Origin: Salinirubellus salinus
GTDB taxonomy: Archaea; Halobacteriota; Halobacteria; Halobacteriales; Haloarculaceae
Direction of reading: 5' to 3'
Assembly (NCBI RefSeq): GCF_025231485.1
Contig: NZ_CP104003.1
Span: forward strand, 2,046,001 to 2,110,000
Length of the DNA stretch: 64,000 nucleotides
Both the position numbers and the translations under genes were made by a program. Under the pieces are notes generated by a model. It was not told the origin of the DNA. It saw only the letters and a list, made by a program, of their open reading frames with translations, and searched no databases. Shown here one piece after another: positions 25,328 to 62,864 of the stretch. Within the stretch, counting starts at the first letter, position 1, and every line of letters starts with the position of its first letter.

Positions 25328-28300
25328 ATGTTTCAGGACCCAGAGACCTTCGCTGGCGCGGGAATCGGCATCGCGACGGGCACCCAACCCATTGGGGCGG
25401 CCCCGGCGCTCGACCCCGGTATCCACCTGCGGTGGGCGAGCGCGCCCCACCGCGGCGTCCCCCGCTACGGAACGTACCTCTTCCGCCGGCGCAGTAGCGA
25501 GGGGCGCACCAAGCCGGTCGGTATCGACACCGAGACGGGCCAGCAGTACGTCGCCGGGACCGAGTCCGACTTCGGCTCGCTCGCGGGCGCGGGCTCGACC
25601 ACGACCGGCACGGGGCCGTTCGGCTGGATCGAGGTCACGTTCACCGACCGGAGCTACATCACGGCCGTCGACGTCCTGTTCACGGGCGGCCAGAGCGGTG
25701 AGACGACCCTCACGACGTTCACCGACGAGCGCGCCGTCGACACCGCGACAGTCGGGCCGGGCCCCGTCGGTCGGCAGACGGTCAAGCTCACCGGGCAGTA
25801 CGTCACCAGCTTCCGTGTCGAGGGTGACTTCGGCCTCCTCCTCGACGTGCGCCTCCACTCGACGGCCGAGAGCCTCTCGACCGGGTGGGACTTCCTCTCC
25901 GGGGCCGACCCGCTCTCGCTCCCGCTGGCACACGACGACTACCCCTGCGTGAGCGCGCCGGCGACGCTCGACGAGGCGCGGTCGCTCGCCCGTGACCGCA
26001 TCGCCTACGGCTCGCCCGACCGCTACGCCGCCGCCAGCACGGCCACGCCCGCCACCGGGACGGCCGCCGTGGCCAACGGGTCGCCACTCGTCGCCGGGGC
26101 GGGGACGAACTGGTCGGCCAACCGCGCCGGGGAAGTGTTCCACGTCGACGGCGACGACGACGCCTACACCGTCCTGTCTGTCCTCGCGAGCGACCGTCTG
26201 CTCCTGTCTCGGCCCTACGCCGGGGCGACCGACGCGAGTGCCGCCTACTCGCTCGCACCCGACCGCTTCGGCACCATCCACGACGCGCTCGCGACGCTCG
26301 TCGCCGGCGGACCCACCGCAGGTGGGCCCTCGGCACGGGCGACCCCGACCGCCGTCGAGACGACGGGCACGGTCACGCGAACCGCGAGCGAGACGGGCGT
26401 CACCGGCATCGGGACCGCGTGGGACGACTCGCTCGAAGGGCTCGGCCTTCAGGTCGCACTCCACACCGGCGACATGGGTGATTTCACTCCTGGCGAGACC
26501 ACCGTCAGGGATGTATTGGGGGGGTACAGCGACCGGCTAGAGGGTGGCATCCTCGTCATCGACGGCCAGCAGACCCGGTACGAGATCGCCGAGGTAGTCA
26601 GTCCGACCGAACTCACACTCGACCGGCCCTACGACGGGCCGTCCTCAACGAGTCAGACCTACACCGTCTACGAGCGAGCGGTGGCTCGCATCGACCGCGT
26701 GGTGAGCCCGACCGAACTCGAACTCGACCAGCCACACGCCGGCCCGACCCACACGAGTGGCCGCGCGTACCGCATCGTCGGGTCGATGGCCGCACTCGGG
26801 GCGAGCGGTGACGAGACGCTGACGCTCGCCGCACAGTACCCGCTCGAGACGCTCTCCGTCGCGAGCATCGACCCTGCCGTCGCCCAGCTCCTCGGGAGCG
26901 CCTGGGTCGACGACACGGTCGAGGCGAACGTCGCGTACGACTACCTGCTCGTCACCGACCACACGGGCTACGTCGACCTGCTGGCTAACGTCTGGAACGT
27001 CGACGCGGGCGACCCGGTCGACTTCCGCGAGTTCGTCGGCGATGTCGTCGTCGCGGCCGAGTACGACCTCGTCGACGCCTACCTCCTCTCGAACTTGGAG
27101 CAGGGCGACACCGACCCGCCCGCACCGGCCGCCCCGACAGACGTCAGAGCGTACGACCTGCCGCCGTCGACTGCGACCGGGACCGACCATGACCGCTACG
27201 CTGCGGGCCTCGGCTGGGACACGGGCCACGTCGACGGCCACCTCCCCATCGACGCCCCGGCCGCGTACTACTGCTGGCGGACCGCACTCGGCGATAGCCC
27301 CGGCTCACTGGCACCGGCGACGTCGGCTTACACGCCGCTCAGTGACGACCCAGTCACGGACTTCCTCGCGGATGCCGAGCCGGTCCTCGTCGCGAACGGT
27401 GACGACGGCCCGAGCGTTCCCGGCTGGCCGACGGCCCCGGTTCACGCCGTCGACGGCCGGCGCCCGCCGGGCTGGTACAGCTATCGCGTCACCGGCGTCG
27501 ACCTGTTCGGCCGGCACACCGACTACAGCGAGCCCACGACGTGGCACGACCCCGAGACCGACCAGCCGGCGACTCACGCTACCCACCCCGACGCCCCGGG
27601 TTTCGCGGTCGAACTCCGGGCCCGACTCCCCCCGCCGCGGCCGGCCGGCGTCACGGCGACCGTGCTCGACCCGCAGGACCCCGACGACGCGGACGACGCT
27701 GCGGCCGTCGCCTGGTGGGACCAGCACGGCCGGCAGGTCGCCCTCCGCATCGGCTGGGCCTGGCCGGCCGCCTTCGACGCACAGGCACCCGATACGGACG
27801 CCTTCGAGTGTCTGGTCGAACTCGGCTCGCTCAACAGCCACCCCGGAACCGTCACCGCGGTGAACGAGGGCCCCGAGACGACGCGCGTCACCACCACGCT
27901 CTCGCACACCGTTGACCCGACCGACGCATCCAGCCCGTCGCTCTCGCCCGGTGCCTTCGCCGGCGCCTCGCTCTCGGTCGCGGGCGCGACGTTCACCGTC
28001 GTCGACAGCGGCGGCGGGAGCGGCCTCTGGGTCGAGGTCCGAACCCGCGAGGGCCCCGACGGCCCGGTCGTCCCACAGACGGGGGCGGAGTGTGCGCTGG
28101 CCGTCCCAGCCGTGTACGATACGGGGACCGCCACGGTCGTCGACGGGGACGCCGTCGTGACCGGGCGCGACACCGGCTGGCGTGACGCACTCGTCGGCCA
28201 ACCGTTCCGGCTGGCGACGACCGGCGAGACATACGAGGTGACGCGTGTCGACTCGCCCACCCGACTCCACCTCGACCGCCCCTACGAGACCCCGCCGAAC

Positions 28301-30019
28301 CGCCCGGACCGCGAAGCCGCGGCGTACGCCGTCGACCACCCCGTGAGCACGGACTACAGCGAGCACGACGCCTGGACGTTCCAGGTCGACGATGTCCCCA
28401 TCGACGCCGACGTGACCGACCGCCGGACGCCGGCCGGCGACCGCTTCTACGAGACGACCGTCCCCGCCCCGGGCGCCGATGGCGGTGGGTTCGACCCCGG
28501 TGTCGGCTCCGGCGAGTCGCCCGTCGTCTACGCCAACGTGGGTGTCAACGCCCGCATCGACACCGACGACGGCTCCCTCCGCGGTGACGTCGGCGGCCCC
28601 GCCCCGGTCGCCAGAGCGCACCGCGACCCGCCGGCCACGCCCGAAGTCCCACCGCTCGACTCCAGTGTCGACTGGGCCACCCACCCCGACTACGACGGCC
28701 TCGCCCACTACACCGTCCGCTGGGTCCGCCCGCCGGACGGCGTCGAGGCACACGTCTACCGCACGCTCGACCGGACGCTCTTCCGCGTGGACTGGGACCG
28801 CCGGAGCGCGACCGACGCGTTCGTCCTCGACGCCACTGCGACCGAGTACTTCCCGCCGTCACGACGCGGTGACGACGCCGCCGAACGGGCACGACGCGAG
28901 GCCATCACCACCACGCTCACGACCGACCTCGACGTCGACACGTGGGCCGCTGCCGAGACGGTCTACCTCGGGCTGGAGCCTGACGAACTCCAGACGCTGG
29001 CGGCGCTGCCGGGCAACGAGTCGGCGTTCACGCAGCTGACGACCGACCCGCTCGCGCCAGCCGACGCGCCGAACGTCCGCGGGCCGGACTACGAGGCCGG
29101 CGACCCCGGCCCGGGAACCCAGCCCGGCGTCGACGGCGTTCCGGACGAGATGCCACCCGGCGACGACCTCTGTGCGTACGTCGACAGCTTCGACGGCCGC
29201 TCGCGTAACCACTATCTCTACCGAGTCGGTGCCGTCGACGACGCCCACAACCGCGCCGGGGCGCTCACCTACCCGACCCCGCCGACGCGGGCGCTGGATG
29301 CCGTCCCGCCGGAGACGCCCGTTGTCACGGGTCTCGTCGCCGGGCATCCGGACGACGCCGAGGCGGACGACCGCCGACTCACCCTCCGCTGGAACGCCGT
29401 CCGGAGTCCCGATCTCGCGCGCTACCGCGTCTACCGGACGACCGACCCGGACGCGGTCCGCGACGTCCGGCTGATGGACGAGGCCGCGACGCTCTCCGTT
29501 CCGGTCGCGACCGATGGCGACCCACTCGTGACCGGCCGGAGCGACGGCTCGACCGTCTTCTGGACCGACGGCGACCGCGACGCCGGCGTCGACCACCACT
29601 ACCGCGTCGTCGCCGAGGACGAGACGGGGAACGCCTCGCGTGCCTCAGATGCGGTCGCTGGCCGCACCTTCGACACCACCCCGCCGACGCCGCCCACGGT
29701 GACGGCCGAGTGGGTCCGCGTCGGCCCGAACGGGACCGTCCAGCCCTACGCCGACCCGTTCCCGCCGGACGAACGGTGGCGACCGGCTGTTCGCGTGACG
29801 TGGGCCGACGGTGCCTCGTCCCGCGTACTCCTCGAGTCGGGGCCGGCGACCGGTCCAGACGGCTTCGCACCGGCATCGGGCTGGCTCGTCGATACGACCG
29901 AGTATCTCCACGATCCCGGCGAGTCAGCGCCCTACCGCATCCGGGTGCGTGTCCTCGACGACCGCGGTCGGCAGGCGACCGGTGACCCCGTGACGGTCCC
30001 GGCACCCGGAGGTGCGTGA
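25328..30019 (+). CDS. 1563-aa giant protein with phage-fibre-like beta repeats and FN3-like domains
   Basis: ATG 25328; no signal peptide or TM segment. The N-terminal part (ALDPGIHLRWASAPHRGVPRYGTYLFRRR) is followed by a beta-rich region. Three copies of a repeat resembling phage tail-fibre domains are visible: about 242-311 (TGTAAVANGSPLVAGAGTNW...LLLSRPYAGATDASAAY), 346-485 (a split or double copy, ...SPTELTLDRPY and ...SPTELELDQPH) and 933-1004 (TGTATVVDGDAVVTGRDTGW...SPTRLHLDRPY). FN3-like pieces lie at about 596-750 (PPGWYSYRVTGVDLFGRHTDYSEPT) and 1325-1455 (RLTLRWNAVRSPDLARYRVYR, YRVVAEDETGNASRAS). No catalytic motif was seen. Its stop overlaps the next start (TGATG). A structural, fibre- or scaffold-like role is inference. 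Confidence 0.8.
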   Translation: MFQDPETFAGAGIGIATGTQPIGAAPALDPGIHLRWASAPHRGVPRYGTYLFRRRSSEGRTKPVGIDTETGQQYVAGTESDFGSLAGAGSTTTGTGPFGWIEVTFTDRSYITAVDVLFTGGQSGETTLTTFTDERAVDTATVGPGPVGRQTVKLTGQYVTSFRVEGDFGLLLDVRLHSTAESLSTGWDFLSGADPLSLPLAHDDYPCVSAPATLDEARSLARDRIAYGSPDRYAAASTATPATGTAAVANGSPLVAGAGTNWSANRAGEVFHVDGDDDAYTVLSVLASDRLLLSRPYAGATDASAAYSLAPDRFGTIHDALATLVAGGPTAGGPSARATPTAVETTGTVTRTASETGVTGIGTAWDDSLEGLGLQVALHTGDMGDFTPGETTVRDVLGGYSDRLEGGILVIDGQQTRYEIAEVVSPTELTLDRPYDGPSSTSQTYTVYERAVARIDRVVSPTELELDQPHAGPTHTSGRAYRIVGSMAALGASGDETLTLAAQYPLETLSVASIDPAVAQLLGSAWVDDTVEANVAYDYLLVTDHTGYVDLLANVWNVDAGDPVDFREFVGDVVVAAEYDLVDAYLLSNLEQGDTDPPAPAAPTDVRAYDLPPSTATGTDHDRYAAGLGWDTGHVDGHLPIDAPAAYYCWRTALGDSPGSLAPATSAYTPLSDDPVTDFLADAEPVLVANGDDGPSVPGWPTAPVHAVDGRRPPGWYSYRVTGVDLFGRHTDYSEPTTWHDPETDQPATHATHPDAPGFAVELRARLPPPRPAGVTATVLDPQDPDDADDAAAVAWWDQHGRQVALRIGWAWPAAFDAQAPDTDAFECLVELGSLNSHPGTVTAVNEGPETTRVTTTLSHTVDPTDASSPSLSPGAFAGASLSVAGATFTVVDSGGGSGLWVEVRTREGPDGPVVPQTGAECALAVPAVYDTGTATVVDGDAVVTGRDTGWRDALVGQPFRLATTGETYEVTRVDSPTRLHLDRPYETPPNRPDREAAAYAVDHPVSTDYSEHDAWTFQVDDVPIDADVTDRRTPAGDRFYETTVPAPGADGGGFDPGVGSGESPVVYANVGVNARIDTDDGSLRGDVGGPAPVARAHRDPPATPEVPPLDSSVDWATHPDYDGLAHYTVRWVRPPDGVEAHVYRTLDRTLFRVDWDRRSATDAFVLDATATEYFPPSRRGDDAAERARREAITTTLTTDLDVDTWAAAETVYLGLEPDELQTLAALPGNESAFTQLTTDPLAPADAPNVRGPDYEAGDPGPGTQPGVDGVPDEMPPGDDLCAYVDSFDGRSRNHYLYRVGAVDDAHNRAGALTYPTPPTRALDAVPPETPVVTGLVAGHPDDAEADDRRLTLRWNAVRSPDLARYRVYRTTDPDAVRDVRLMDEAATLSVPVATDGDPLVTGRSDGSTVFWTDGDRDAGVDHHYRVVAEDETGNASRASDAVAGRTFDTTPPTPPTVTAEWVRVGPNGTVQPYADPFPPDERWRPAVRVTWADGASSRVLLESGPATGPDGFAPASGWLVDTTEYLHDPGESAPYRIRVRVLDDRGRQATGDPVTVPAPGGA

Positions 30020-31602
30020 TGGCCGACGTGGACGCGCTGGTCGAGAAGTGGTTCATCGACACCAACGGCACCCGGAACCTGCTGGACCTCGCTGCGAGCG
30101 AGGCGAAGAACCACTGGCTTCCCCCGCAGACCCGACACGAGGGAGCGAGCCTCACCGACCACACCACCGGGAACGACGTCACGGCGCTGCTCGACGGGGA
30201 GAACATCCTCCCGAAGTGGGCGGAGGGAGTCGTCCACCTCACGAACAACCACGGAGACGCCCAGCTGCTGCACTCCGGCTGGATCGCGAGGGACATCAAC
30301 GTGAAAGCCGGGAAGTCGGTCTCGCACTATCTCGGGCAGCTGACGGCCAAGACCGACGAGGTGTACATCGCGCTCAGCGACCACTGGACGAACGCGACGG
30401 ACAACCGCAAGTTCGCCAACTCCGTCGGCATCGACACGGCCGCGGTCGACTCACGCTACCCCGACGTTGGGTCCAACCACGCGAAGTACACCGTGTTCAA
30501 GGACGGCACAGACGACTACGCGCTGGTCGGGTCGGCCGACCTCTGGGGACCCGCTCGGGCCGTCCAGGCGCACGACCAGCTCGGCGGCCAGCACGAACTC
30601 AGCGTGACGCTCCGCGGGCCGGCTGTCGCGGACGTCCAGCAGTCGTTCGTCAACCGCTGGAATGACGAGACGCGCGACGACGTCAAGGGCTCGCTCTGGC
30701 ACCCCGTCTCGAAGAGCACCGTCGGCAGTATCATCGGCCCGTACGCCGTCTGGACGGAGAAGACGCCACCGGAGTTGAGCGCCAACGCCGTGCAGACGAC
30801 CACGACCGGGACCCACGCCGTCCAGGTGCTCCAGACGTTCGGCATCGACCACGACGACGAGACCTACTCGTGGGCGAACGGCTCCGGCGGCGAGTTCACC
30901 GTCTGGGCCGCCCGACTCCGCGCGCTCTCGAAGGCGACCGACTACATCTACGTCGAGGACCAGTACTTCGTCCCCTTCGGCGTCCCGGGGACGAAGACCT
31001 ACCAGCTCGCGATGAAAGCGGACCACAAGTGGGCGCCGTTCACTCATCTCAAGGAACGACTGGCGGCCGGCGTCGACGTCTTCGTCGTGACGAATCCCGA
31101 ACTCGACGGGCGGTTCGCGAACACGGCAGCGTTCGCCCGGACGGACGCGCTCGTCGAACTGAAGACAGCGAGCGAGCAGTCCGGGGCCGGCGACCTCGTC
31201 GTCGCCTCACTCGAGGTGGGCGGCGACGTGGTCAACACCCACGCGAAACTCGTCGTCGTCGACGACGAGTACGTCGCGCTCGGCTCGGCCAACTTCAACC
31301 GCCGGTCGGCGACCAACGACGGCGAACTCGCCCTGGGTATCGTCGACGGTGACGAGACGCTCGTCCCGACTATCCGCAGCGAGACGTGGGGTGAGCACCT
31401 CGGGGTCTCCCCGTCGTCGCTGGGCGACCTCGCCGCCGCGAAGGCGACCTACAAGGACCGCGTGACGAACGAGACTGGCCGACTCCGCGCCCTCGACATC
31501 CCAGACGAAGCGACGGACGAGCCGTGGAACCAGAAGTTCGGCCTCAGCCAGTGGGACCACTACGCCGGCCCGGCCGACCGCACCCCGGAGGCAGACCAAT
31601 GA
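30019..31602 (+). CDS. Phospholipase-D-superfamily protein with two HKD motifs
   Basis: 527 aa; ATG 30019 overlaps the upstream stop (TGATG), and a GTG one codon earlier is possible. First HKD region: SNHAKYTVFKDGTDDYALVGSADLWGP (His154, Lys156; Asp162, one residue later than the canonical H-x-K-x4-D). Second: VNTHAKLVVVDDEYVALGSANFNRRS (His408, Lys410, Asp415, canonical spacing). DYIYVEDQYFVPFG between them matches the IxxxxQYF motif of eukaryotic-type PLDs. Enzymes of this fold cleave phosphodiesters in phospholipids or DNA. No secretion signal; the operon suggests delivery or action together with the flanking giant proteins. Stop overlaps the next ATG (ATGA). Confidence 0.88.
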   Translation: MADVDALVEKWFIDTNGTRNLLDLAASEAKNHWLPPQTRHEGASLTDHTTGNDVTALLDGENILPKWAEGVVHLTNNHGDAQLLHSGWIARDINVKAGKSVSHYLGQLTAKTDEVYIALSDHWTNATDNRKFANSVGIDTAAVDSRYPDVGSNHAKYTVFKDGTDDYALVGSADLWGPARAVQAHDQLGGQHELSVTLRGPAVADVQQSFVNRWNDETRDDVKGSLWHPVSKSTVGSIIGPYAVWTEKTPPELSANAVQTTTTGTHAVQVLQTFGIDHDDETYSWANGSGGEFTVWAARLRALSKATDYIYVEDQYFVPFGVPGTKTYQLAMKADHKWAPFTHLKERLAAGVDVFVVTNPELDGRFANTAAFARTDALVELKTASEQSGAGDLVVASLEVGGDVVNTHAKLVVVDDEYVALGSANFNRRSATNDGELALGIVDGDETLVPTIRSETWGEHLGVSPSSLGDLAAAKATYKDRVTNETGRLRALDIPDEATDEPWNQKFGLSQWDHYAGPADRTPEADQ

Positions 31603-34600
31603 CACGATACGCGAGCGACATCCCAGCCACGCAACTGTTCTCGGCCGACGACCTGCCGCTGTCGAAGGTCCTCCCGACCGAGGGAATCGACGACCTGCTC
31701 GACCGACTGTACTTCCGCAGCGTCGAAGAGGCGTACGACCCCGCCACCGAGACGACGACGCTCCAGTACGGTGCCGTCGTCGACCCGGAGGCGGCGTTCG
31801 AACTCCCCGGCCTCGGCGGGATGCAGGTCGTCGTCGGTGGCGATACAGCCATGCTGGCCGCCGAGTTCGTCGGCGGTCCAGATACGGGGGCACTGACCCT
31901 CTCGGGTGGCATCGCGCTTCGCTTCCCCCGCGAGTGGCTCCGGCCCGTCGTCGAGACCGAGGACGGCTGGGTCGACGACCCGTCCCGCGAGCACGTCGAA
32001 CTCGGATTCGGCGGCGGCGTCACCGTCGACCACGAGTTCGATGTCACCTTCGAGGGGAGCAATCGCTTCACCGTCGAGCCGGCCATGATCGGCGACACCG
32101 GCCTCGTCGTCGAGGGAAGCGTCGCGGTCGACCTCTCGGAGACGACCGCGCACCCCTCGAGCGCGGCGATGGGCCTCGACCCCTCGTGGCGTGGCGTCGT
32201 CTTCGATGACCTCACGCTCCACCTGCCCGAGGCGCTCGACGTGCCGGGCGCTCCGGCCGAACTCTCGCTCGAGGAGTTCCACGTCGGCGGAGGCGGCGTC
32301 TCGGGGACCGTCTCGGGTGACTGGGACGCCGGCGACGCCACCGGGTCGCTGTTCGGGATGGAGTTCGAGTTACGGACGGTCGACATCGAGTTCCGCGAGT
32401 CCGCACTCGTCGGTGCCGGTGCGCGGGGGACGCTCACGCTCCCGTTCTTCGACGGCCCGGTCGACCTCGAACTCGGCATCGCGGGCGACGGTACCGTGAC
32501 GGCCGCACTGGACGACCCGGACGGCCTTGTCTCCGTCGACCACGACGCCTACGCGCTCGAGATCGACGGCCTGCGCTTCTCGACGGCCGGAACTCCCGCC
32601 GTGGCGCTCAGCGGGACCGTCACGCCGAAACTCGTCCCCGACGCGCCGGGTGTCCGTATCGAGGAACTCAGCGTCGACGCCGACGGGAACGTCCGTGTCG
32701 AGGGCGGCTGGCTCGACCTGCCCGACCAGTACAGCATCGACTTCTACGGCACGACGTTCGAGATCACCGCCTTCGGCCTCGGTCGTAACGACGACGGCAG
32801 CAAGTGGGTCGGCCTCGACGGGAGCGTCACGTTCGTCGACGAGCTCTCGGCGGGGGCGTCGGTCGACGGCCTGCGCGTCACCTGGTTCGACGACGGTCCT
32901 CGTGCAGGCGACGCCCCACAGCTCTCGTTCGAGGGCATCGGTGTCGAACTCGAGATACCCGACGCCGTCCGGTTCAAGGGGGCGGTCTCCTACACCGAGC
33001 GCACGCTCGACGACGGCTCGACCGACCACCGCTTCGAGGGCGACATCGGCCTCGACCTGCTCGCACTCGACGTCTCGGTCGACGGCAAGCTCGTCGTCGG
33101 CCAGCGCGAGGAGGCCGGCGAGACGTTCACCTACCTCGCGGTCTACCTCGGGGTCGACCTCCCCACCGGGATTCCGCTGTTCTCGACGGGCCTCTCGCTG
33201 TACGGGTTCGCGGGGCTGTACGCACAGAACATGTCGCCCGCGCTCGAGGACGACGAGGCGTGGTTCACGCGCGACCCGGACCAGGAGAGCTGGTACCACC
33301 GCGACCCCGAAGGGGCGACGGGCTTCGGTGGCGACCCGCCGAAGTGGCCCGCACGGAAGGGCGACCTCGCGTTCGGTGCGGGCGTCACCCTCGGGACCGC
33401 CGCGGACGACGGCTTCTCGTTCTCGGGTAACCTCCTGCTCGTGGTCGCCTTCCCCGGCCCCGTGGTCGTCCTGAACGGCGAGGCGACGATGCTGGCCAAG
33501 CGGAGCGATCTCGACAGCGGCGAGCCGAACTTCTCGGCGCTCGCCGTCCTCGACGGCCGCGCCGGGACGTTCACCTTCGGGCTGGACGCGCAATACCGCT
33601 TCGGCGACGGTGGCGAACTCGTCGACATCGGCGCGAGCGTCGAGGCGTTCTACAGCCTGAACGACCCGACCGCATGGTACGTCTACATCGGCCGGAAGGA
33701 GCCACGCGAGAAACGCGTCCGCGCGACCATCTTCTCGCTGTTCGAGGCGAACGGCTACGTCATGCTGGACTCGCGGCAACTCGCCGTCGGCGCCTGGTAC
33801 GGCTTCGACGAGTCCTACTCGTTCGGCCCGCTCGGCGTCGACCTGGAAGCGTGGCTCTCGGGCGACGCCGTCCTGAGCTTCGACCCCGCACACTTCTCGG
33901 GCGTCGTCGCCGCGAGAGGTGCCGTCCGGTTGCGAGCGTTCGGCTTCACCGCCGGCATCAGCCTCGACGCGACCATCGCCGCCGAGGTGTTCGACCCGTT
34001 CCACCTCCTCGGCAAGGTCAGAGTCGCGCTCGAACTGCCGGGGTTCCTCCCGGACCCGAGCGCGACCGTCACGCTGGAGTGGGGGCCACGACCCGAGCCG
34101 CCCGAACTGTCCGACCCGCTCGCAGGCGTCGCTATCGACCACGACCTCGGGACGGCGACCTGGCCACTCGCGCTCGACGACGACACCCCGCCAGCGGACG
34201 AGGACCTCCCGGTCGTCCCGCTGGACGGCCGGCCGCAGCTCACGTTCGCCGCCGCCGTCCACGACGACGGCTACGACGCGCTCGCCACCCCGGACGGGAC
34301 GCCCGACCCGGTCGGCGAGAACGCCCACCCGGTCCGGCCGGCGTACGTCCGCATCGGTGACCCGGCCGCGAACGAGGGCCCGGTCGAGGTCAGATACGGG
34401 CTCGCGGCCGTCCGCGTCGAGCGCCGGACCGCCAGCGGGTGGGAGTCGATGCCGGACGTGTTCGGCTCGTGGGCACCCGTCCCGACCCTGCCGGAGGGCG
34501 ACCGCACCGAGGGGGCCGACCCGCCGATGGCGAACACCAAGCTGTCGCTGTTCACCCCCAACCCGTTCGCGTACGTCCGGCACACGAGCGGGGCGTGGGG

Positions 34601-37600
34601 CGACGCGATGGTCGAGCGCGCCGGCGACTACCCCTGTCTGGCCAAGCGCGACTGCTGGACGTTCGAGGGTACCTCGCTCGCGGACTTCGACGTCCGGGCG
34701 ACTACGCTGCAGGGCATCCCGGTCACGACTGTCGACCGGGCCGACAGCGAGCCGTGGCCGACGTTCCACCACGCCGCGACGGTCCCGTCCGACCCGCCGG
34801 ACGTCGAGGACGTCTTCGCGGACGGCGCCCGGCGAGCGCTCACTCTCGGGTTCGTCGCCCCGGCCGACACGGCCGGTGACGACCTGGGGCAGTACCTCGT
34901 CGTCGACCTCCCCGAGCCACGCAAGTCCGTCGCTATCGAGGTACTGGCGGACAAGTACTGCGACGCCATCGGCCTGTTCGGCACCGACAGCGAGGGCGAG
35001 TCGGTGACGACGTTCGTCGAGCGACCCGAAGGGACCCAGCGACTCACCGTGACCAGCCGTGAGGGGACGCTCGACCGGGTCGTCCTCGTGGCGTACTACG
35101 CCGGCGACACGACGGCCACGTCGAGCGTCGGCGACCTCGCGGTCTTCTCGGTGTGTGCCTCGACTGCCGCGCTCTCTGACGTCGGCGCACTCGAGGTCGC
35201 TCGCGAGCGGACCATCCGCGAGCAGGTGGCCCGCCTCGGCGACGAGGCGGCCGTCTTCGACTCGCACACGACCTACCGCATCGCGGTCGAGACGACGCTC
35301 CAGGCCCGCGGCCTCGGCGAGTTCGACTGGTTCACCGAGGAACGGACCAGCACCGCCTACGCCTACTTCCGAACCGACGGCCCGCCCACACTCGCCTCGC
35401 TCTCGGTCCCCGAGGGGGCCGACCCCGAGCAGTTCGAGAGCGGTCTCGAGGACCTGCGACGCTACGTCCGCGGGACCGTCCCCGAGACGCTCCCGGCCCG
35501 TGGCGAGCGCCCCAGCCTCCCGCGGCCGGTCTACCGCGCCTACGACGTGGGCGTCCGCTTCAACCGGACTCACGTCGACCGGCTCTACCGGAGCGTGGGC
35601 CGCGACCTCGCGCTCGTCCTGTTCGACCGCAACAACCGGCCCGCACGGACCGCCGACGGCCGACTGCACGTCGTGGCGAACCGGTGGGGCGAGCAGGCCG
35701 ACCTCCTGCTCGACGTGGCCGAGCGCCAGTGGCTGCGCGCGGTCGACCGTGGTGAGTGTGCCGGCATCGACCGCGCCGTCGTCACCCGTGACGACCTCCT
35801 CGACGCCGTGGTCGGCCTCGGCGTCCTCGACGCCGACGAGGTCTACGAGGCACGACTGCTCCCACGCCTCCTGCGCGACCCGTTCGGCGACCGGGCGTAC
35901 TACGACGGCGAGCCGCCGTGGACGGCGGTCACGCGCGGTGGCGCGAGCGCCGACTGGACCGTCGACGGCCACCCAGACCTCGCCGGCGCCCGCGCCGAAC
36001 CGGCCGGTGACGGCTTCAGACTCCAGATACGCGACCCGAACGCGGCCGACGGTGCGCCCCCGTCGTACGTCGACGCCGACCTCTCGGCCCTGACGGCAGG
36101 CGCCGACGTGATCCGGTTCGCCGCGGCGGCCGGCTCGAAGACGGTCCGTATCACGGCCGTCGACCCCGCGAGCGCGACCGTCGAGGTGGACGGCAGCCCC
36201 TCGTTCACCACGTCGCGGTGGCTCGTGCCCGGACGTGGCGAGGTCACGCAGGCGGCGGCCACCCCCACGGGCGACGACGCGTTCACCTGCTGGGTCCGCG
36301 ACCCGGTGCCGGGGACGCCGGCCCCGGAGACGTGGACGGACTACCGGGCGGCAATGACGGTGACGCTCGACGCTCCGGACGCAGCCGCCGGGCTGGCCGT
36401 CCGGTACGACGCCGACGGTGGCCACCTGCGCTACGTCGTCGACGCGGGCGCGGACGAGCGCCGCCTCGTCAGCGACGACGGCTCCACGGCGACCGTCCTC
36501 GAGACCGTGCCCGGCCCGGTCGACCGTGGCCAGCCCTACGCGCTCGCCATCGAGGCCGTCGATGAGGAACTCCGGGTCTACGAGGACGACACCCTCGTGG
36601 CCACGGCCACGGCTGACGACGCGCTCGCGGGTGGCGTCGCGCTGGTCGCCCACGGCCCGGCCACGTTCGGCGAACTCCGCGTCGACGACGTCTCGACGGA
36701 CGCGCCGGTCGCCTACCGCTTCGCGTTCACCACCTCACGGTTCGCCAACGTCGCCCACCACCTCGGGAGCTACGCGGACGAGACCTGGCGCGCGACGAGT
36801 GCCGACCCCATCGACGCGACGGAGGGGGTCGCGCTCGGTGACGCGGACACACCACCCACTGCCGACGAGGGGCGTGCGTACGCCGCCGCGGTCGACGCGC
36901 TCGACCGGCCCGCTAGCGACCCACCCACCCGTGTCGAGGCGACGGTCGTCGGCGAGAGCGACACGCCACACGCGCTCCTCCTCGAGAGCCCCGAACCGCT
37001 CGACTGGACGCGGACCACGCTCTCGCTCTCGCACACGACTCGGGGCTCGGCGGCCGACGTGGTCCCCGACGGCGCGAAGGTGACTGACGTGACCTACGGT
37101 GCCGACGAGACGGTCGGGCTCCTCCTCGACCGCGAGACCGACCTCTCGGGCCACCGCGTCGAGTTCCGCCACGACGGTGACGGGCACGTCCCCCCACTCG
37201 TCGGGGCGCTGTTCGTCGACGACGCGGCCGACGAGCAGTTCGTCGCCTACGGGCGCCCGGACGGCGTGCGTCGGACCGCAGACGGCGCGTTCGTCGTCGA
37301 CCCGGACGAGGCCCCCGAGACGCTGTTCATCGACGAGCGCTTCCCGGCCGAGGCGGTCTGGTCGGTCGCGTTCGACGCGCCCGGAGACGCCGAGGTCGGC
37401 CTCGCGTTCCGCGAGGGGAGCGACAGCGGCTATCGATTCACCGTCGGCCCGGACGGTCGGGCGCTCGTTCACTACGACGTCGGTGGCTTCGACACGCTCT
37501 GGGCGGACGACACCGTCGTCGCATCGAGCGGGCCGGTCGCGCTCCGTGTGGAGGCAGTCGATGGCCGCCTCACAGTCTACCAGGACGAGATTCCCGTCTG

Positions 37601-38678
37601 TGCGGTCGACGACCCCGGCGGGAGCGACGGCCGGTTCGGACCGGTCGTCAACGGCGACTCCCCCGTGACGGTGACGCACGTGGCGGTACACGAGACGGCC
37701 GCACGCGCCGGCCTCTTCGCCGAGTCGTTCGACGACCCGGCGCTCGATGGCTGGACGGTCGTGGACGAGCCGCCGGAGACGACCCGGACCTCCGACTGGC
37801 GCGTCGAGGACGGGACGCTGGCCCAGCACAGCAACATCTACGGCTTCCACGGCGAGCCCTACGGCGAGCCGGGGACGTTCCTCGTCACCGACGAGCCGTT
37901 CACGGACGGTCGCGTCACCGTCCGGCTCCGGTCGGACGACGACGACGCCATCGGCGTGATGGTCCGCGTTCGCGACGAGGAGAACTACTACCGGTTCTCG
38001 ATGGACAGCGAACGGTCCTACCGGCGGTTCGACCGGCAGACCGACGGCATCACGGTCCCGCTCTGGGCGGACGAGGTGTCGTTCGAGGCCGGCCACGAGT
38101 ACCTCCTCACGCTCGACTGCGAGGGCGACCGGTTCACGGGCTACCTCGACGGCGTCGAACTGTTCAGTGTCCGCGACAGCGCCCACGCCGCCGGCGCGCT
38201 CGCCCTCTACTGCCGGGCGAACGTCGGCGCGAAGTTCCACGACGCCCACGTCACCGCGGCGGCCGACCAGTGGGTCACCTACCACCGCTTCGAGGACGAG
38301 TCACCCAGACCGGCCGGCACCCAGCTCCGGCTGCACGCCGGCCCGACGCCGGACCGGACCGGTGCCGGTATCGTCCCGGTCCGGGTCGGCGAGGAGCCAC
38401 GACTCCCCACGACCGGCGCCGCACTCCGCCTCGTGGGCCCGGACGGCGTGCGACACGAGCGGTGGGTCGCGCCCGCGAGTGCGTTCGGCCCGGTCACCGA
38501 CGTCACGCTCCTCCGGGCGCTCGACGGGACGGGTGTCTGCTGTCTCGTCGACGGCCCGCTCGAGAACGGGACGTACCGGCTCGACGTCGAGTACGCCAGG
38601 GACGGGGAGGTCAGGCTGACGCAGGCCGGAGACAGCACGCCCGAGCGGGCACGGCTGGACCTCACCGTCACCGACTGA
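31599..38678 (+). CDS. 2359-aa giant beta-rich protein: DUF6603-like core plus three lectin/LamG-like domains
   Basis: ATG 31599 overlaps the PLD stop; an upstream in-frame start lies inside the PLD gene and is rejected. No signal peptide. Residues about 60-830 are long amphipathic strands with Gly turns (GLSLYGFAGLYAQNMSPALEDD, GDPPKWPARKGDLAFGAGVTLGTA, FSFSGNLLLVVAFPGPVVVLNG, FGLDAQYRFGDGGELVDIGASVEAFY), the look of DUF6603 giants in bacteria; I cannot confirm by search. Three ConA/LamG-like domains follow at about 1554-1700, 1907-2033 and 2039-2220 (FDDPALDGWTVVDE, GVMVRVRDEENYYRFSMDSE, LTLDCEGDRFTGYLDGVELF). The C-terminus is a short beta domain. A surface-binding or shell-like function is inferred. 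Confidence 0.8.
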   Translation: MTRYASDIPATQLFSADDLPLSKVLPTEGIDDLLDRLYFRSVEEAYDPATETTTLQYGAVVDPEAAFELPGLGGMQVVVGGDTAMLAAEFVGGPDTGALTLSGGIALRFPREWLRPVVETEDGWVDDPSREHVELGFGGGVTVDHEFDVTFEGSNRFTVEPAMIGDTGLVVEGSVAVDLSETTAHPSSAAMGLDPSWRGVVFDDLTLHLPEALDVPGAPAELSLEEFHVGGGGVSGTVSGDWDAGDATGSLFGMEFELRTVDIEFRESALVGAGARGTLTLPFFDGPVDLELGIAGDGTVTAALDDPDGLVSVDHDAYALEIDGLRFSTAGTPAVALSGTVTPKLVPDAPGVRIEELSVDADGNVRVEGGWLDLPDQYSIDFYGTTFEITAFGLGRNDDGSKWVGLDGSVTFVDELSAGASVDGLRVTWFDDGPRAGDAPQLSFEGIGVELEIPDAVRFKGAVSYTERTLDDGSTDHRFEGDIGLDLLALDVSVDGKLVVGQREEAGETFTYLAVYLGVDLPTGIPLFSTGLSLYGFAGLYAQNMSPALEDDEAWFTRDPDQESWYHRDPEGATGFGGDPPKWPARKGDLAFGAGVTLGTAADDGFSFSGNLLLVVAFPGPVVVLNGEATMLAKRSDLDSGEPNFSALAVLDGRAGTFTFGLDAQYRFGDGGELVDIGASVEAFYSLNDPTAWYVYIGRKEPREKRVRATIFSLFEANGYVMLDSRQLAVGAWYGFDESYSFGPLGVDLEAWLSGDAVLSFDPAHFSGVVAARGAVRLRAFGFTAGISLDATIAAEVFDPFHLLGKVRVALELPGFLPDPSATVTLEWGPRPEPPELSDPLAGVAIDHDLGTATWPLALDDDTPPADEDLPVVPLDGRPQLTFAAAVHDDGYDALATPDGTPDPVGENAHPVRPAYVRIGDPAANEGPVEVRYGLAAVRVERRTASGWESMPDVFGSWAPVPTLPEGDRTEGADPPMANTKLSLFTPNPFAYVRHTSGAWGDAMVERAGDYPCLAKRDCWTFEGTSLADFDVRATTLQGIPVTTVDRADSEPWPTFHHAATVPSDPPDVEDVFADGARRALTLGFVAPADTAGDDLGQYLVVDLPEPRKSVAIEVLADKYCDAIGLFGTDSEGESVTTFVERPEGTQRLTVTSREGTLDRVVLVAYYAGDTTATSSVGDLAVFSVCASTAALSDVGALEVARERTIREQVARLGDEAAVFDSHTTYRIAVETTLQARGLGEFDWFTEERTSTAYAYFRTDGPPTLASLSVPEGADPEQFESGLEDLRRYVRGTVPETLPARGERPSLPRPVYRAYDVGVRFNRTHVDRLYRSVGRDLALVLFDRNNRPARTADGRLHVVANRWGEQADLLLDVAERQWLRAVDRGECAGIDRAVVTRDDLLDAVVGLGVLDADEVYEARLLPRLLRDPFGDRAYYDGEPPWTAVTRGGASADWTVDGHPDLAGARAEPAGDGFRLQIRDPNAADGAPPSYVDADLSALTAGADVIRFAAAAGSKTVRITAVDPASATVEVDGSPSFTTSRWLVPGRGEVTQAAATPTGDDAFTCWVRDPVPGTPAPETWTDYRAAMTVTLDAPDAAAGLAVRYDADGGHLRYVVDAGADERRLVSDDGSTATVLETVPGPVDRGQPYALAIEAVDEELRVYEDDTLVATATADDALAGGVALVAHGPATFGELRVDDVSTDAPVAYRFAFTTSRFANVAHHLGSYADETWRATSADPIDATEGVALGDADTPPTADEGRAYAAAVDALDRPASDPPTRVEATVVGESDTPHALLLESPEPLDWTRTTLSLSHTTRGSAADVVPDGAKVTDVTYGADETVGLLLDRETDLSGHRVEFRHDGDGHVPPLVGALFVDDAADEQFVAYGRPDGVRRTADGAFVVDPDEAPETLFIDERFPAEAVWSVAFDAPGDAEVGLAFREGSDSGYRFTVGPDGRALVHYDVGGFDTLWADDTVVASSGPVALRVEAVDGRLTVYQDEIPVCAVDDPGGSDGRFGPVVNGDSPVTVTHVAVHETAARAGLFAESFDDPALDGWTVVDEPPETTRTSDWRVEDGTLAQHSNIYGFHGEPYGEPGTFLVTDEPFTDGRVTVRLRSDDDDAIGVMVRVRDEENYYRFSMDSERSYRRFDRQTDGITVPLWADEVSFEAGHEYLLTLDCEGDRFTGYLDGVELFSVRDSAHAAGALALYCRANVGAKFHDAHVTAAADQWVTYHRFEDESPRPAGTQLRLHAGPTPDRTGAGIVPVRVGEEPRLPTTGAALRLVGPDGVRHERWVAPASAFGPVTDVTLLRALDGTGVCCLVDGPLENGTYRLDVEYARDGEVRLTQAGDSTPERARLDLTVTD

Positions 38679-39956: not shown

Positions 39957-41336
39957 TCAGTCGAAGGCCGCCGCCACGTCCTCTACGTCGTAGAGGAGCA
40001 GGTCGTCTCGCTCGTCCGCCAGCGCAGCAAGATCGTCGGTGAATCCGGCTTTCGAGAAGAGCGCGTAGGTCACCGCCCGGTCGTCCCCGCGCCATCCGAC
40101 CTCAGGTTCGGTGGCCTCGAGCGAGCGCAACAGACCCGGACCGACGGGGTCGTTCGTCCACTTGCACTCACCGAGCAGGAGCGTCTCCGTCCCCTCGTTC
40201 AGGCCCACCACGTCGACCTCGTCCTCACCGTACCACCACCGGCCGACGCGCGAACACTCGACGGGGAAGCTGTCGGTCGAGACGGCCTCCCGGCAGACGG
40301 CCTCGAAGGTCCAGATCGTGTGCGTCGGGAGCCCCTCTCGGACCACGTCGAGGACGGCGTCGGTCGCGCCGCGCTCGAGCTGGGCCCGATTCGGCGAGAC
40401 GAACCGGAACCAGAACCGGAGGAAGTCGTCGGCGATACGATAGACTCTGCGCCCCTCGGGGTCGGTGACCGGTGTCTCCTTCTCGAGCAGAGCGAGTCGT
40501 GAGAGATTCTGTAGGTAGCGCGAGAGACTGCTCGCCGGGCGGTCGATCTCGTTGGCGATCTCGGTCACGCGGGTCGAACCAGCCGAGACCGCCTCCAGGA
40601 TGGCCATGTACGTCGCCGGCTCGTGGAGTTCCTGCCGCAGGAGGAACTCCGGCTCCTCGTAGAGGAACGACCCCTTGGTGAGTACGCGGCGCTCGGCGTT
40701 CGCGAGCAGTGACGCCGACGGATCAAGCTGTTCGAGATACGCGGGCATCCCCCCGAACACCGCGTACGTCCGTATCTGGTCGCGTGTATCGTATCCCGGG
40801 ACGAACTGCCGGGCCGCACCGAAACCGAACGGTTCCAGCCGCCACTGGCCCGTCCGCCGGCCGTAGAGCGGGCTCTCGTAACTGAGTGTCCCCTCCTCCA
40901 TCATCGAGATGGACGACCCGAACAGGACCAGCGAGACGTCGGTCCCGGCGAGCGTCTCGTCGAACACGCCCTGGAACACCGACGGCACGGTCTCGTCGGC
41001 CGAGACCAGGTAGGAGAACTCGTCGATGGCGACGACGAACGGGCCATCGACTCGGTTCGCGAGGTAGCGAAACGCGTCTTCGAACCCGTCGACGGCCGGT
41101 TCGACGTCGTCGAGGGCGTCGGCACACGCCGCCGCGAAGCGCTGCGCGTTCGCCTCTGTCCCGCGCTCGTCGCAGAGGAAGTAGAGGCTCGGCTGGTCGA
41201 GCGTCGAGAGTGCTCGAGTGACGAGCGCCGTCTTGCCGACGCGACGCCGACCGTAGAGGACGAGGAGTTGGCGCTCCCCGCTGGTGAGGCGGTCGGCGAG
41301 CCAGTCAACTTCAGCCTCGCGGTCGACGAAGTTCAT
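39957..41336 (-). CDS. Archaeal AAA ATPase with winged helix and DUF234 nuclease-like domain (paralogue 1)
   Basis: 459 aa from ATG 41336 (MNFVDREAEVDWLADRL); upstream in-frame extension is rejected because the start lies at a palindrome-rich promoter. Walker A LYGRRRVGKTAL, Walker B FVVAIDEFSYLV, sensor LFGSSISMM. A winged helix follows (EAVSAGSTRVTEIANEIDRPASSLSRYLQNLSRLALLEKE), then RIADDFLRFWFRFVSPN and the DUF234 PD-(D/E)XK-like core WWYGEDEVDVVGLNEGTETLLLGECKWTN (Asp, Glu, Lys all present). This is the mobile archaeal ATPase family; function is unproven. It is a paralogue of the gene at 41918. Confidence 0.9.
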   Translation of the reverse strand: MNFVDREAEVDWLADRLTSGERQLLVLYGRRRVGKTALVTRALSTLDQPSLYFLCDERGTEANAQRFAAACADALDDVEPAVDGFEDAFRYLANRVDGPFVVAIDEFSYLVSADETVPSVFQGVFDETLAGTDVSLVLFGSSISMMEEGTLSYESPLYGRRTGQWRLEPFGFGAARQFVPGYDTRDQIRTYAVFGGMPAYLEQLDPSASLLANAERRVLTKGSFLYEEPEFLLRQELHEPATYMAILEAVSAGSTRVTEIANEIDRPASSLSRYLQNLSRLALLEKETPVTDPEGRRVYRIADDFLRFWFRFVSPNRAQLERGATDAVLDVVREGLPTHTIWTFEAVCREAVSTDSFPVECSRVGRWWYGEDEVDVVGLNEGTETLLLGECKWTNDPVGPGLLRSLEATEPEVGWRGDDRAVTYALFSKAGFTDDLAALADERDDLLLYDVEDVAAAFD

Positions 41337-41367
41337 TATGCACGCGATAATATTATCTTCTGCATAA
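41336..41367. promoter_or_regulatory. AT-rich nested palindromes before ATPase paralogue 1
   Basis: TTATGCA (41336-41342) and TGCATAA (41361-41367) flank the perfect palindrome GATAATATTATC (41346-41357), immediately upstream of (and touching) the start codon. The GATAAT/ATTATC hexamers recur before paralogue 2. Confidence 0.6.
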
Positions 41368-41445
41368 TAACTGTTCGCCGAGGAGGCCCGTGAAGCAGTG
41401 GCAGTGGTGAGGAAAGCCCATATCGAGCCGGGCGAACGACCACGG

Positions 41446-41841
41446 ATGGGACTGTTCGACCGCCTCCGAATCGAGGACGGCCTCGACATCACTCTCCCGG
41501 GCTTCGAGGGCGACCCCACCGCCGTGACGTGGCAGACGAAGTCGCTGTACCCCCCGGCGATGGAGAACTACAAAATCACGATGGGGGGACAGCTCTACTA
41601 CGAGCGGACGCGTACCGAGGAGGTACCCGAAGCGGAGCGCCCGCTGTACGACGAGGAAATCGGCGGGTTCGAGAGCGCTCTGCAGCGTCTCGCTGGAAGT
41701 CTGCGAACCGTCCATCTGGGCTGGACGGATACGGAGTACCACGGGACCATCGAGTTCCACCGGTCCATCGACGACGGGTGGTACGCCTACGAGGCGACGT
41801 TCACGGACGGCAACCTCGAACTCGTCCAGCGGGTACACTGA
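41446..41841 (+). CDS. Small haloarchaeal protein between the two ATPase paralogues
   Basis: 131 aa from ATG 41446 (MGLFDRLRIEDGLDITLPGF); an in-frame start at 41398 is less likely. No known domain recognised. Composition is acidic with a strand-rich middle (YKITMGGQLYYERTRTEEVPEAERPLYD, TVHLGWTDTEYHGTIEFHRSID) and C-terminal strands (WYAYEATFTDGNLELVQRV). No TM or signal. It starts 110 bases from paralogue 1 (divergent) and ends 77 bases before paralogue 2, so it may share their regulation. Confidence 0.7.
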   Translation: MGLFDRLRIEDGLDITLPGFEGDPTAVTWQTKSLYPPAMENYKITMGGQLYYERTRTEEVPEAERPLYDEEIGGFESALQRLAGSLRTVHLGWTDTEYHGTIEFHRSIDDGWYAYEATFTDGNLELVQRVH

Positions 41842-41889: not shown

Positions 41890-41919
41890 CATTATCGCGA
41901 TAATGATTATCCAGATAAT
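41890..41919. promoter_or_regulatory. Two adjacent GATAAT/ATTATC palindromes before ATPase paralogue 2
   Basis: CATTATCGCGATAATG (41890-41905) is a perfect 16-bp palindrome. ATTATC-CA-GATAAT (41906-41919) follows directly and overlaps the first bases of ATG 41918. Half-sites match those of paralogue 1. Confidence 0.65.
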
Positions 41920-43324
41920 GGCCTTCTACGACCGGGAGGAGGAACTCGCCGCACTCGAACGGGCGTTCGACGAGCCCGGACACGACGTGGTCGTACTGTA
42001 CGGACGGCGCCGTGTCGGGAAGACCGAGTTGCTCAAGCGGTTCCTCGCCGACCGCGACGGTGTCTACTACCTCGCAGCCCAAGAGGCAGAGCAACGACAA
42101 CGAGAGAAGTTCGTCGAGCGGATTGCGACGCACTTCGGCGACCGGTTGCCGGCGCTAACGGGCTGGGACGACGCGTTCGACTATCTGGGTGAGCGCCTGG
42201 TCGAGACTGGCGATCCCACGGTCGTCGCGATCGACGAGTTCCCCTATCTGGTTGAGGAGAACGACTCGGTCCCGTCGTACCTCCAGGGGTTCGTCGACGA
42301 GCAGTTGGCGAAGACGGACTCGATGCTCGTCCTGTGTGGCTCAAGTATCAGCGTGATGGAGTCGGAGGTTCTCGGCCACGACAGCCCACTCTATGGACGC
42401 CGGACGGCACAGTTCGACCTCCAGCCGTTCGGCTTCAGCGAGGCCCTCGAAGCCATCGACTACCCGTTCGAAGCCGCGCTCACTTCGTTCTCGGTCACGG
42501 GGGGGACACCGCTCTACCTGACGCTCTTCGATTACGACCAGTCGCTGGAGACGAACGTCCGTGAGCAGGTCCTCACGCCGACGGCGGTGCTCTACAACGA
42601 GCCAGAGTTCTTGCTCCGTTCGGAACTCCGCAATCCGGCCAGATACATGAGCATCCTCGAAGCGATCGCTTCGGGGCGAACGACACCGAACGACATCGCG
42701 GGGGCGACTGGTGTCGAGACGGGTCCGCTCTCGAAGTACCTGCAGACGTTGCGACAGCTGCGACTGGTCGAGCGGGTCGTTCCGGTGACGGCACTGGGCC
42801 AGTCTTCGAAGCGTTCGCGATACCGGGTCGCCGACGAGTTCCTCCGGTTCTGGTTCCGGTTCGTCGGTCCGAACCGCTCGAGCATCGAGGCCGCACCGGA
42901 TGCAGTCTACGGGCAGACGATAGCGCCGAACCTGGCAGACCACGCTGCCGAGACGTTCGAGCGAGTCTGTCAGGAGGCCGTCTGGGCGGCGGTTCGGGAC
43001 GGGACACTCGGTCCGTACGGGGCCGTCGGGACGTGGTGGTACGGGGAGGAGGAGATCGACGTCGTCGGTCTCTCGCCGGAAGACGACCGTATCCTCTTCG
43101 GGGAGTGCAAGTGGACGAACGAACCGGTCGGGCCAGCACTGGTCGAGTCGCTGCGAGCGAAGGCCTCGGCCGTCCGCTGGGGGCCTCCCGATCGGACCGA
43201 ACAGTTCGCGTTGTTCTCTCGGTCCGGCTTCACCGACGGGGCCGAGGCAGCCATCGACGAGTCGTGGGAGCTGTTCGAGCTCGAGCGTCTCGATGGCCTC
43301 CTCCGAACCGAATCGAGCGACTAA
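41918..43324 (+). CDS. Archaeal AAA ATPase with winged helix and DUF234 nuclease-like domain (paralogue 2)
   Basis: 468 aa from ATG 41918 (MAFYDREEELAALERAF). Walker A LYGRRRVGKTEL, Walker B TVVAIDEFPYLV, sensor LCGSSISVM, winged helix (EAIASGRTTPNDIAGATGVETGPLSKYLQTLRQLRLVERV), YRVADEFLRFWFRFVGPNR, nuclease-like WWYGEEEIDVVGLSPEDDRILFGECKWTN. The order and motifs match paralogue 1 residue by residue in the core. The winged helix makes autoregulation through the GATAAT palindromes plausible. Sits 1 kb from paralogue 1 on the opposite strand. Confidence 0.9.
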   Translation: MAFYDREEELAALERAFDEPGHDVVVLYGRRRVGKTELLKRFLADRDGVYYLAAQEAEQRQREKFVERIATHFGDRLPALTGWDDAFDYLGERLVETGDPTVVAIDEFPYLVEENDSVPSYLQGFVDEQLAKTDSMLVLCGSSISVMESEVLGHDSPLYGRRTAQFDLQPFGFSEALEAIDYPFEAALTSFSVTGGTPLYLTLFDYDQSLETNVREQVLTPTAVLYNEPEFLLRSELRNPARYMSILEAIASGRTTPNDIAGATGVETGPLSKYLQTLRQLRLVERVVPVTALGQSSKRSRYRVADEFLRFWFRFVGPNRSSIEAAPDAVYGQTIAPNLADHAAETFERVCQEAVWAAVRDGTLGPYGAVGTWWYGEEEIDVVGLSPEDDRILFGECKWTNEPVGPALVESLRAKASAVRWGPPDRTEQFALFSRSGFTDGAEAAIDESWELFELERLDGLLRTESSD

Positions 43325-61823: not shown

Positions 61824-61891
61824 CTGTTCCTGTTTTTTATAGCCAACACTTCACTGCTTTGATGCCACGATTGCGGCGTATAACCTAATAA

Positions 61892-62842: not shown

Positions 62843-62864
62843 ATTGTTTAATTATAGCCACTAG

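What the first reader, a model, noticed from the sequence alone, without database searches (positions are those of the whole stretch)
25328..38678. Three-gene giant-protein system: fibre-like protein, phospholipase-D enzyme and DUF6603-like lectin giant
Three overlapping genes (TGATG and ATGA junctions) encode a 1563-aa protein with phage-fibre-type repeats and FN3-like domains, a two-HKD phospholipase-D-fold enzyme, and a 2359-aa beta-rich protein with three ConA/LamG-like domains. None shows a signal peptide. The gene overlaps imply fixed stoichiometry, as in a complex. The set looks like an adhesive or injection-type assembly with a lipase or nuclease payload, but no baseplate, sheath or AAA+ eCIS gene is within view. 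I know of no described archaeal system with this layout.
Basis: partly seen in the sequence, partly recalled or inferred. Interest (0 to 1): 0.9.

Follow-up and report, generated by a model that had tools for sequence, protein, structure and literature searches.

The report
Conserved three-gene phospholipase D giant-protein cassette
A rare set of three adjacent genes, making two giant surface-type proteins and a lipid-cutting enzyme, occurs in the same order in salt-loving archaea and in unrelated bacteria, which points to an undescribed mobile system (perhaps a toxin complex) whose function is still untested.

Summary
ORFs A (25328-30019, 1563 aa), B (30019-31602, 527 aa, PLD) and C (31599-38678, 2359 aa, DUF6603 plus three LamG-like domains) overlap by 1 and 4 bases. 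I found the same A-B-C order in two other haloarchaea (one is Halogranum rubrum), in Mycetohabitans plasmids, Paenibacillus ginsengarvi, an Anaerolineae MAG and another Chloroflexota genome. No fourth gene is shared and no phage or viral relative was found. The middle slot varies: one genome has two PLDs, another an unrelated 643-aa protein with hydrophobic segments. In distant DUF6603 loci an A-like partner stays without a PLD. B is nearest to eukaryotic PLDs and to PldA, a type VI secretion toxin of Pseudomonas, and keeps PldA's active-site residues. No baseplate J was detected in the three haloarchaeal hosts. The best reading (0.45) is a stand-alone, horizontally moving toxin-type complex with A and C as carrier/adhesin and B as an exchangeable lipase warhead. 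No export route, immunity gene or activity is shown. A 2011 genome paper noted the bacterial copy as 'three large hypothetical proteins'; no paper I could search treats it as a conserved system. Structure predictions failed (pLDDT 41 and 30).

The parts
25328..30019 (+). Gene A: 1563-aa FN3-rich giant protein, no Pfam hit; conserved N-terminal GIHLRW...YLFRR region and C-terminal FN3-like domains
   Evidence: orthologues in 7 further genomes
26054..26254 (+). A: phage-fibre-type module 1 (aa 243-309)
   Evidence: PHROG 1980 at 242-312; module HMM
26363..26776 (+). A: further fibre-type module matches (aa 346-382, 385-447, 446-483)
28121..28333 (+). A: fibre-type module (aa 932-1002)
   Evidence: PHROG 1591 at 928-982
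29285..30016 (+). A: C-terminal FN3-like region (about aa 1320-1563)
   Evidence: alignments A3/A5; weak PDB profile hits to titin and myomesin
30019..31602 (+). Gene B: 527-aa phospholipase D, eukaryotic/PldA-like type; starts inside A's stop codon (TGATG)
   Evidence: PF13091, PF00614; profile to PDB; junction
30478..30540 (+). B: first catalytic motif, H154-x-K156 ... D174 (GSADL, equivalent of PldA GGIDL D184)
31240..31326 (+). B: second catalytic motif H408-x-K410-x4-D415 ... S423 ... E436
   Evidence: PF00614 at 408-430
31599..38678 (+). Gene C: 2359-aa DUF6603 giant; overlaps B by ATGA
32853..33578 (+). C: DUF6603 core match (aa 419-660); the surrounding aa 180-830 is strongly beta-amphipathic
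   Evidence: PF20248; hydrophobic moment z = 5.3 at 165 degrees, -3.4 at 100 degrees
36219..36647 (+). C: LamG/jelly-roll-like domain 1 (aa 1541-1683)
37260..37643 (+). C: LamG/jelly-roll-like domain 2 (aa 1888-2015)
37797..38210 (+). C: LamG/jelly-roll-like domain 3 (aa 2067-2204)
   Evidence: PF06439 at 2042-2202

Best explanation
The three genes form a self-contained, horizontally moving cassette that encodes one protein complex working as a toxin. A (FN3-rich, often with phage-fibre modules) and C (a large beta-sheet DUF6603 domain followed by lectin-like domains) are the conserved carrier/adhesin pair that holds and targets the cargo. B is the warhead, a phospholipase D that hydrolyses membrane phospholipids of a competitor or host cell; the middle slot is exchangeable. 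Translational coupling keeps the three proteins co-produced, and sequestering B by A/C would explain the lack of an immunity gene. Release is probably by lysis or an unknown non-Sec route. Shown: the conserved three-gene order in two domains, B's active-site residues, the variable middle slot, variable lectin-like and fibre modules, no further conserved gene. Inferred: complex formation, PLD activity, targeting, release and toxicity.
For: Same A-B-C order and orientation in the window, G001, Halogranum rubrum, Mycetohabitans endofungorum and M. rhizoxinica plasmids, Paenibacillus ginsengarvi, an Anaerolineae MAG and Chloroflexota G837, with tight or overlapping junctions in most. No other conserved flanking gene. 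Middle slot varies: two tandem PLDs in G837; in G1018 an unrelated 643-aa protein with hydrophobic segments, coupled by ATGA to A and by a one-base overlap to C. A and C remain partnered without a PLD in Azospirillum and G821. B's best solved relatives are plant PLD-alpha1 (1.8e-36), the type VI effector PldA (7v53, 7.7e-33) and human PLD1/2, and B keeps PldA's active-site network H167/K169/D184/H855/K857/S870/E885 (D467 is E193) (PMC9550806). Lectin-like domains vary from 1 to 6 copies. Patchy distribution: C at full length in 2 of 97 relatives, B in 2 of 391 class members; copies on plasmids beside transposases and toxin-antitoxin genes. A DUF6603 gene, a PLD close to B and a Tle1-type lipase gene lie within about 12 kb on a Streptomyces plasmid.
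Against: No secretion signal, secretion machine, lysis gene or immunity gene is linked. No experiment shows activity or toxicity. The exchange of the middle slot rests on one clear case (G1018). No structure supports a carrier role: both AlphaFold jobs were poor and the Foldseek hits were meaningless. LamG, FN3 and fibre-type modules are also common in surface and matrix proteins that are not toxins.
Confidence: 0.45

Rival explanations
1. A self-directed envelope system: A and C are giant surface or matrix proteins and B remodels the cell's own phospholipids (or transphosphatidylates them) to anchor or modify the surface.
For: FN3, LamG-like and fibre-type modules are typical of surface proteins; the Paenibacillus copy is flanked by beta-helix surface-type proteins; DUF6603 is strongly beta-amphipathic, which would fit a lipid-facing sheet.
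Against: No signal peptide, clear membrane anchor or sorting signal seen in the window copy; very patchy distribution and plasmid location; middle slot replaced by a non-lipase in G1018.
Confidence: 0.22
2. Cargo or fibre accessory of a contractile injection system (eCIS or haloarchaeal T6SS).
For: Tube-family (gp19) genes occur in three of seven host genomes, including the window's own, Paenibacillus and G837; a predicted eCIS toxin is known from Mycetohabitans rhizoxinica (PMC11297309); A has tail-fibre modules.
Against: G001 and Halogranum (about 99% complete) have neither tube nor baseplate J matches, and the window's host has no baseplate J, only an isolated tube pair about 1 Mb away; no CIS gene is shared among the cassette neighbourhoods. 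Archaeal baseplate J may be too divergent for the Pfam model, so absence is not absolute.
Confidence: 0.1
3. Substrates of a plasmid type IV secretion system, as suggested for the Mycetohabitans copy in 2011.
For: The pBRH02 cluster was noted as three large hypothetical proteins, one with a PLD domain, on a T4SS-bearing plasmid (PMC3102044).
Against: No T4SS gene or other neighbour is shared between the Mycetohabitans copies and the copies elsewhere; the authors themselves left open that the T4SS only mobilises the plasmid.
Confidence: 0.05
4. Intracellular defence system in which the PLD acts as a nuclease against phage.
For: Weak PADLOC hits of B to DISARM DrmC (best 1.5e-6), confined to the second half and its HKD motif.
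Against: NCBIfam DrmC score 27 against a cut-off of 133; B is far closer to phospholipid-cleaving PLDs; giant beta-rich lectin-like partners are unlike known defence proteins.
Confidence: 0.08
5. No joint system: three genes carried together by chance or hitch-hiking on mobile DNA, with separate roles.
For: Lone DUF6603 genes (second copy in G837) and lone PLD relatives (Streptomyces sp. NBC_01001) exist.
Against: Order conserved over two domains and at least four phyla with coupled junctions and no other shared neighbour.
Confidence: 0.05

Closest known systems
Mycetohabitans (Burkholderia) rhizoxinica pBRH02 cluster with RBRH_03371 (PMC3102044)
   Same: Same three-gene order and homologous proteins; the paper calls it a cluster of three large hypothetical proteins, one with a phospholipase D domain
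   Different: Seen in one bacterium only; not recognised as conserved or as shared with archaea; suggested as a possible T4SS substrate
PldA / Tle5a, type VI secretion phospholipase D effector of Pseudomonas aeruginosa (PMC9550806)
   Same: B shares the eukaryotic-like PLD core and the active-site residues, with D467 replaced by E193
   Different: B is half the size, too short for PldA's peripheral helical and C-terminal domains, has no cognate immunity gene or T6SS, and is coupled to two giant partners
DUF6603 family (Pfam PF20248)
   Same: C passes the Pfam cut-off
   Different: C is divergent (35 bits, against 326 for a Streptomyces member) and is fused to three LamG-like domains; the family has no known function
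Tc toxin complexes (TcA-TcB-TcC)
   Same: Logic only: large carrier proteins plus an enzymatic part
   Different: No Tc or RHS Pfam domain in any of the three proteins; the enzyme is a separate gene
Haloarchaeal contractile injection / T6SS (Halogeometricum borinquense, PMC11566945)
   Same: Archaeal multi-gene antagonism system with toxin-type parts
   Different: No contractile-system gene linked to the cassette

Membership tests
DUF6603 (PF20248) | Pfam gathering score of 27 bits | tested here: met
   35.2 bits; orthologues align over aa 1-1000
Phospholipase D superfamily | Two HKD-type active-site motifs | tested here: met
   H154/K156 and H408/K410/D415 invariant in alignment A6; the +7 Asp of motif 1 is absent in all cassette copies, while the GGID Asp (D174) that pairs with it in PldA is invariant
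PldA/Tle5 type VI effectors | Closest relationship to eukaryotic-like PLD core | tested here: met
   Profile hits to 6kz8, 7v53 and PLD1/2 far above all other PLDs
PldA/Tle5 type VI effectors | Linked immunity gene and a type VI apparatus | tested here: not met
   No conserved fourth gene; no baseplate J in the haloarchaeal hosts
eCIS / contractile injection systems | Tube, sheath, baseplate and AAA+ genes in one cluster with the effector | tested here: not met
   none seen near the cassette; sheath and AAA+ not searched separately
Tc toxins | TcA/TcB domains and an RHS cocoon | tested here: not met
   No Tc or RHS Pfam/NCBIfam hit in A, B or C
Polymorphic toxin systems | One large protein with exchangeable C-terminal toxin domain plus immunity gene | tested here: not met
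   Exchange is at the level of the middle gene; no immunity gene
DISARM (DrmC) | DrmC score above model cut-off | tested here: not met
   27 against 133 bits
Phage tail fibres | Located in a (pro)phage or has phage relatives over the whole protein | tested here: not met
   Modules match PHROGs but no phage or viral-contig relative of A or C
Secreted toxin complex | Export from the producer and toxicity to a target | not testable with these tools
   Needs experiment

The most novel reading that the evidence does not exclude
A previously unrecognised class of three-component toxin-delivery particle shared by archaea and bacteria: an A/C shell built from FN3-type and DUF6603 proteins, self-sufficient without any contractile or membrane machine, that carries interchangeable effectors encoded in the middle gene (a eukaryotic-type phospholipase D in most copies) and has moved across domains on mobile DNA.
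Probability: 0.3. Interest if true: 0.88.

Novelty: categorically new. Interest (0 to 1): 0.64.

Why it matters
Few archaeal systems for killing or manipulating other cells are known. Here is a compact three-gene unit, homologous over two domains of life, that pairs two uncharacterised giant proteins with a phospholipase related to a known antibacterial effector. If it delivers its enzyme, it would be a delivery principle without a contractile machine and with an exchangeable cargo slot. Even if it acts on its own cell, it gives a conserved functional context for DUF6603 and makes its function testable in genetically tractable haloarchaea.

Tried and rejected
A Foldseek search with the C model gave TM-scores of 0.05-0.11 (normalised by query) and was disregarded. 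An eCIS link was tested through tube and baseplate J families and is not required. A possible cassette-specific N-terminal docking tag in B (KWFxxxxG) was considered and dropped: a stand-alone Streptomyces PLD starts in a similar way (DWLLEPGERGN), so the motif looks native to this PLD branch. DISARM/DrmC was rejected. Phage origin was rejected for lack of any phage or IMG/VR relative. A missed signal peptide at another start was rejected (18 codons to the upstream stop; conserved starts). Whether the trees show exchange of B is only suggestive: A groups the three haloarchaea (100/99) while B puts G001 with Paenibacillus and G837 (100/99), but most A rows fail the composition test. The genome scan with DNA patterns used only two short peptides, so absence from it means little. 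No literature was found for DUF6603.

Full report
Observation. The three ORFs are present at the stated coordinates on the + strand: A 25328-30019 (1563 aa), B 30019-31602 (527 aa from the ATG inside TGATG) and C 31599-38678 (2359 aa from the ATG inside ATGA). Pfam finds PLDc_2 and PLDc in B, and DUF6603 plus the LamG-like family PF06439 in C; A has no Pfam or NCBIfam hit. PHROGs puts tail-fibre modules in A (best E 2.8e-21). A module HMM counts five matches in A, and the LamG-like domain occurs three times in C. No N-terminal hydrophobic segment is seen in any of the three, and A's start cannot be moved upstream by more than 18 codons. The chromosome around the cassette is ordinary: hydantoinase and hydrolase genes upstream, an epimerase and two ATPase_2-DUF234 genes downstream. 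The cassette has 71.6% G+C against 62.1% for the rest of the window, but its GC3 of 0.89-0.92 is inside the range of neighbouring genes (up to 0.93), so composition gives no clear sign of recent arrival.

Relatives. The giant C gene is rare: a full-length match in 2 of 97 close genomes, the window's own and G001 of another genus. B at E<1e-30 is found in 2 of 391 members of the class, the window's own and G408. In both relatives the full A-B-C set is present. In plasmids, four Mycetohabitans records carry A, B and C relatives, and the two examined have them adjacent and in order. A scan of 84,980 species genomes, limited by two short peptide patterns, returned Halogranum, Paenibacillus ginsengarvi and an Anaerolineae MAG, each with A-B-C in order. 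Chloroflexota genomes G837 and G1018 add two more loci. Of 348 Bacillota genomes only the known Paenibacillus matched. No relative of A or C was found among 50,697 phage records or in IMG/VR.

Junctions and neighbours. The two junctions overlap or lie within 5 bases in the three haloarchaea, the MAG and G1018 (A/middle, middle/C); gaps are 14-18 bases in Mycetohabitans, 2 and 36 in Paenibacillus, and 29-90 in G837. All-against-all comparison of flanking ORFs found no fourth gene shared by the loci beyond common families such as the archaeal ATPase_2-DUF234 gene. The conserved unit is therefore three genes.

The middle slot. G837 has two tandem PLDs between A and C. G1018 has, in the same coupled position, a 643-aa protein that does not match the PLD profile, has two hydrophobic segments (413-438, 472-490) and a polar C-terminal part, and has no Pfam, NCBIfam, PADLOC, plasmid or convincing PDB relative. 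In Azospirillum and G821 a distant A-like protein stays next to a distant C without a PLD. Trees put the three haloarchaeal A proteins together (100/99), while B of G001 groups with Paenibacillus and G837 (100/99), which suggests exchange of parts; the A rows fail composition tests, so this is suggestive only. The second DUF6603 gene of G837 lacks a neighbouring A on the stretch held.

What B is. A profile of six B proteins matches plant PLD-alpha1 (1.8e-36), PldA of Pseudomonas aeruginosa (7v53, 7.7e-33) and human PLD1/2 far better than other bacterial PLDs or nucleases. PldA is a T6SS-delivered phospholipase with an active-site network H167-K169-D184, H855-K857, S870, E885 and D467 (PMC9550806). 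On the alignments these correspond to H154, K156, D174, H408, K410, S423, E436 and E193 in B; all but the last are identical and invariant in the cassette alignment. B should therefore be catalytically competent; this is inference, not assay.

What A and C are. C aa 180-830 has a strong beta-type amphipathic signal (z 5.3-6.4 in three species) and a depleted helical one (-3.4), so DUF6603 is most likely a large beta-sheet structure. The lectin-like domains vary from one to six copies among C proteins, as would be expected for binding parts. A carries FN3-like domains and, in some lineages only, fibre modules. Structure prediction failed with the shallow alignments allowed, and the Foldseek output is not usable.

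Delivery machinery. Tube-family genes occur in the window's genome (an isolated pair about 1 Mb away), in Paenibacillus and in G837; baseplate J occurs in Paenibacillus, G837 and G1018; G001 and Halogranum have neither. A contractile system is thus not required, with the caveat that archaeal baseplate genes may escape the model. Haloarchaeal contractile systems do kill other haloarchaea (PMC11566945), so an antagonistic role in this group is plausible.

Prior knowledge. No paper in the library mentions DUF6603. The 2011 genome paper of Burkholderia (Mycetohabitans) rhizoxinica states that plasmid pBRH02 carries a cluster of three large hypothetical proteins, one with a phospholipase D domain, and considers it as possible T4SS cargo (PMC3102044). 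That is very probably this cassette (same plasmid); its conservation and its occurrence in archaea were not reported in the papers I could search (subscription journals are mostly not held).

Interpretation. The pattern of a conserved A/C pair, a variable middle gene usually encoding an enzyme related to a toxin, variable binding modules, patchy and plasmid-borne distribution and absence of other genes fits best with a stand-alone toxin-type complex (0.45). The main rival is a self-directed envelope or lipid-remodelling complex (0.22). Complex formation, activity, release and target are untested. Whatever the function, the unit is real, conserved across domains, and not a member of any system tested here.

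Noticed in passing
G000:C1:3092182-3093043 (L035): Two adjacent gp19-type tail-tube genes in the window's genome with no baseplate J match anywhere in that genome; orphan tube pair or a divergent contractile system.
   Followed up: partly
window 58000-64000: G+C falls to 0.48-0.52 against about 0.62 for the rest of the window outside the cassette, a possible acquired region.
   Followed up: no
L043 (Streptomyces sp. NBC_01724 plasmid, 148000-175000): A shorter DUF6603 gene starts a closely spaced run with 1179-aa, 1553-aa and 559-aa proteins of unknown family, and a Tle1-type lipase gene plus a PLD gene close to B lie 6-9 kb away.
   Followed up: partly
L038 (G1121:C57, around 246-250 kb): A DUF6603 gene of a large Chloroflexota genome lacks its first 150 residues, contains a TAG stop and sits directly behind a DDE transposase gene, apparently a broken copy.
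   Followed up: partly
L015 9932-18640: The Paenibacillus C protein carries six LamG-like domains against three in haloarchaea and one in Chloroflexota, a lineage-specific expansion.
   Followed up: yes
L013 430-11440 (Paracoccus aminophilus pAMI4): A 2554-aa DUF6603-type protein followed by a 1114-aa partner without Pfam hits, a possible further layout of the family.
   Followed up: partly
window 39957-41519 and 41903-43324: Two archaeal ATPase_2-DUF234 genes close together on opposite strands next to the cassette; a relative also lies near the Halogranum cassette.
   Followed up: no
window 25232: TTTAAG, a possible archaeal TATA element, lies 96 bases before the start of A.
   Followed up: no
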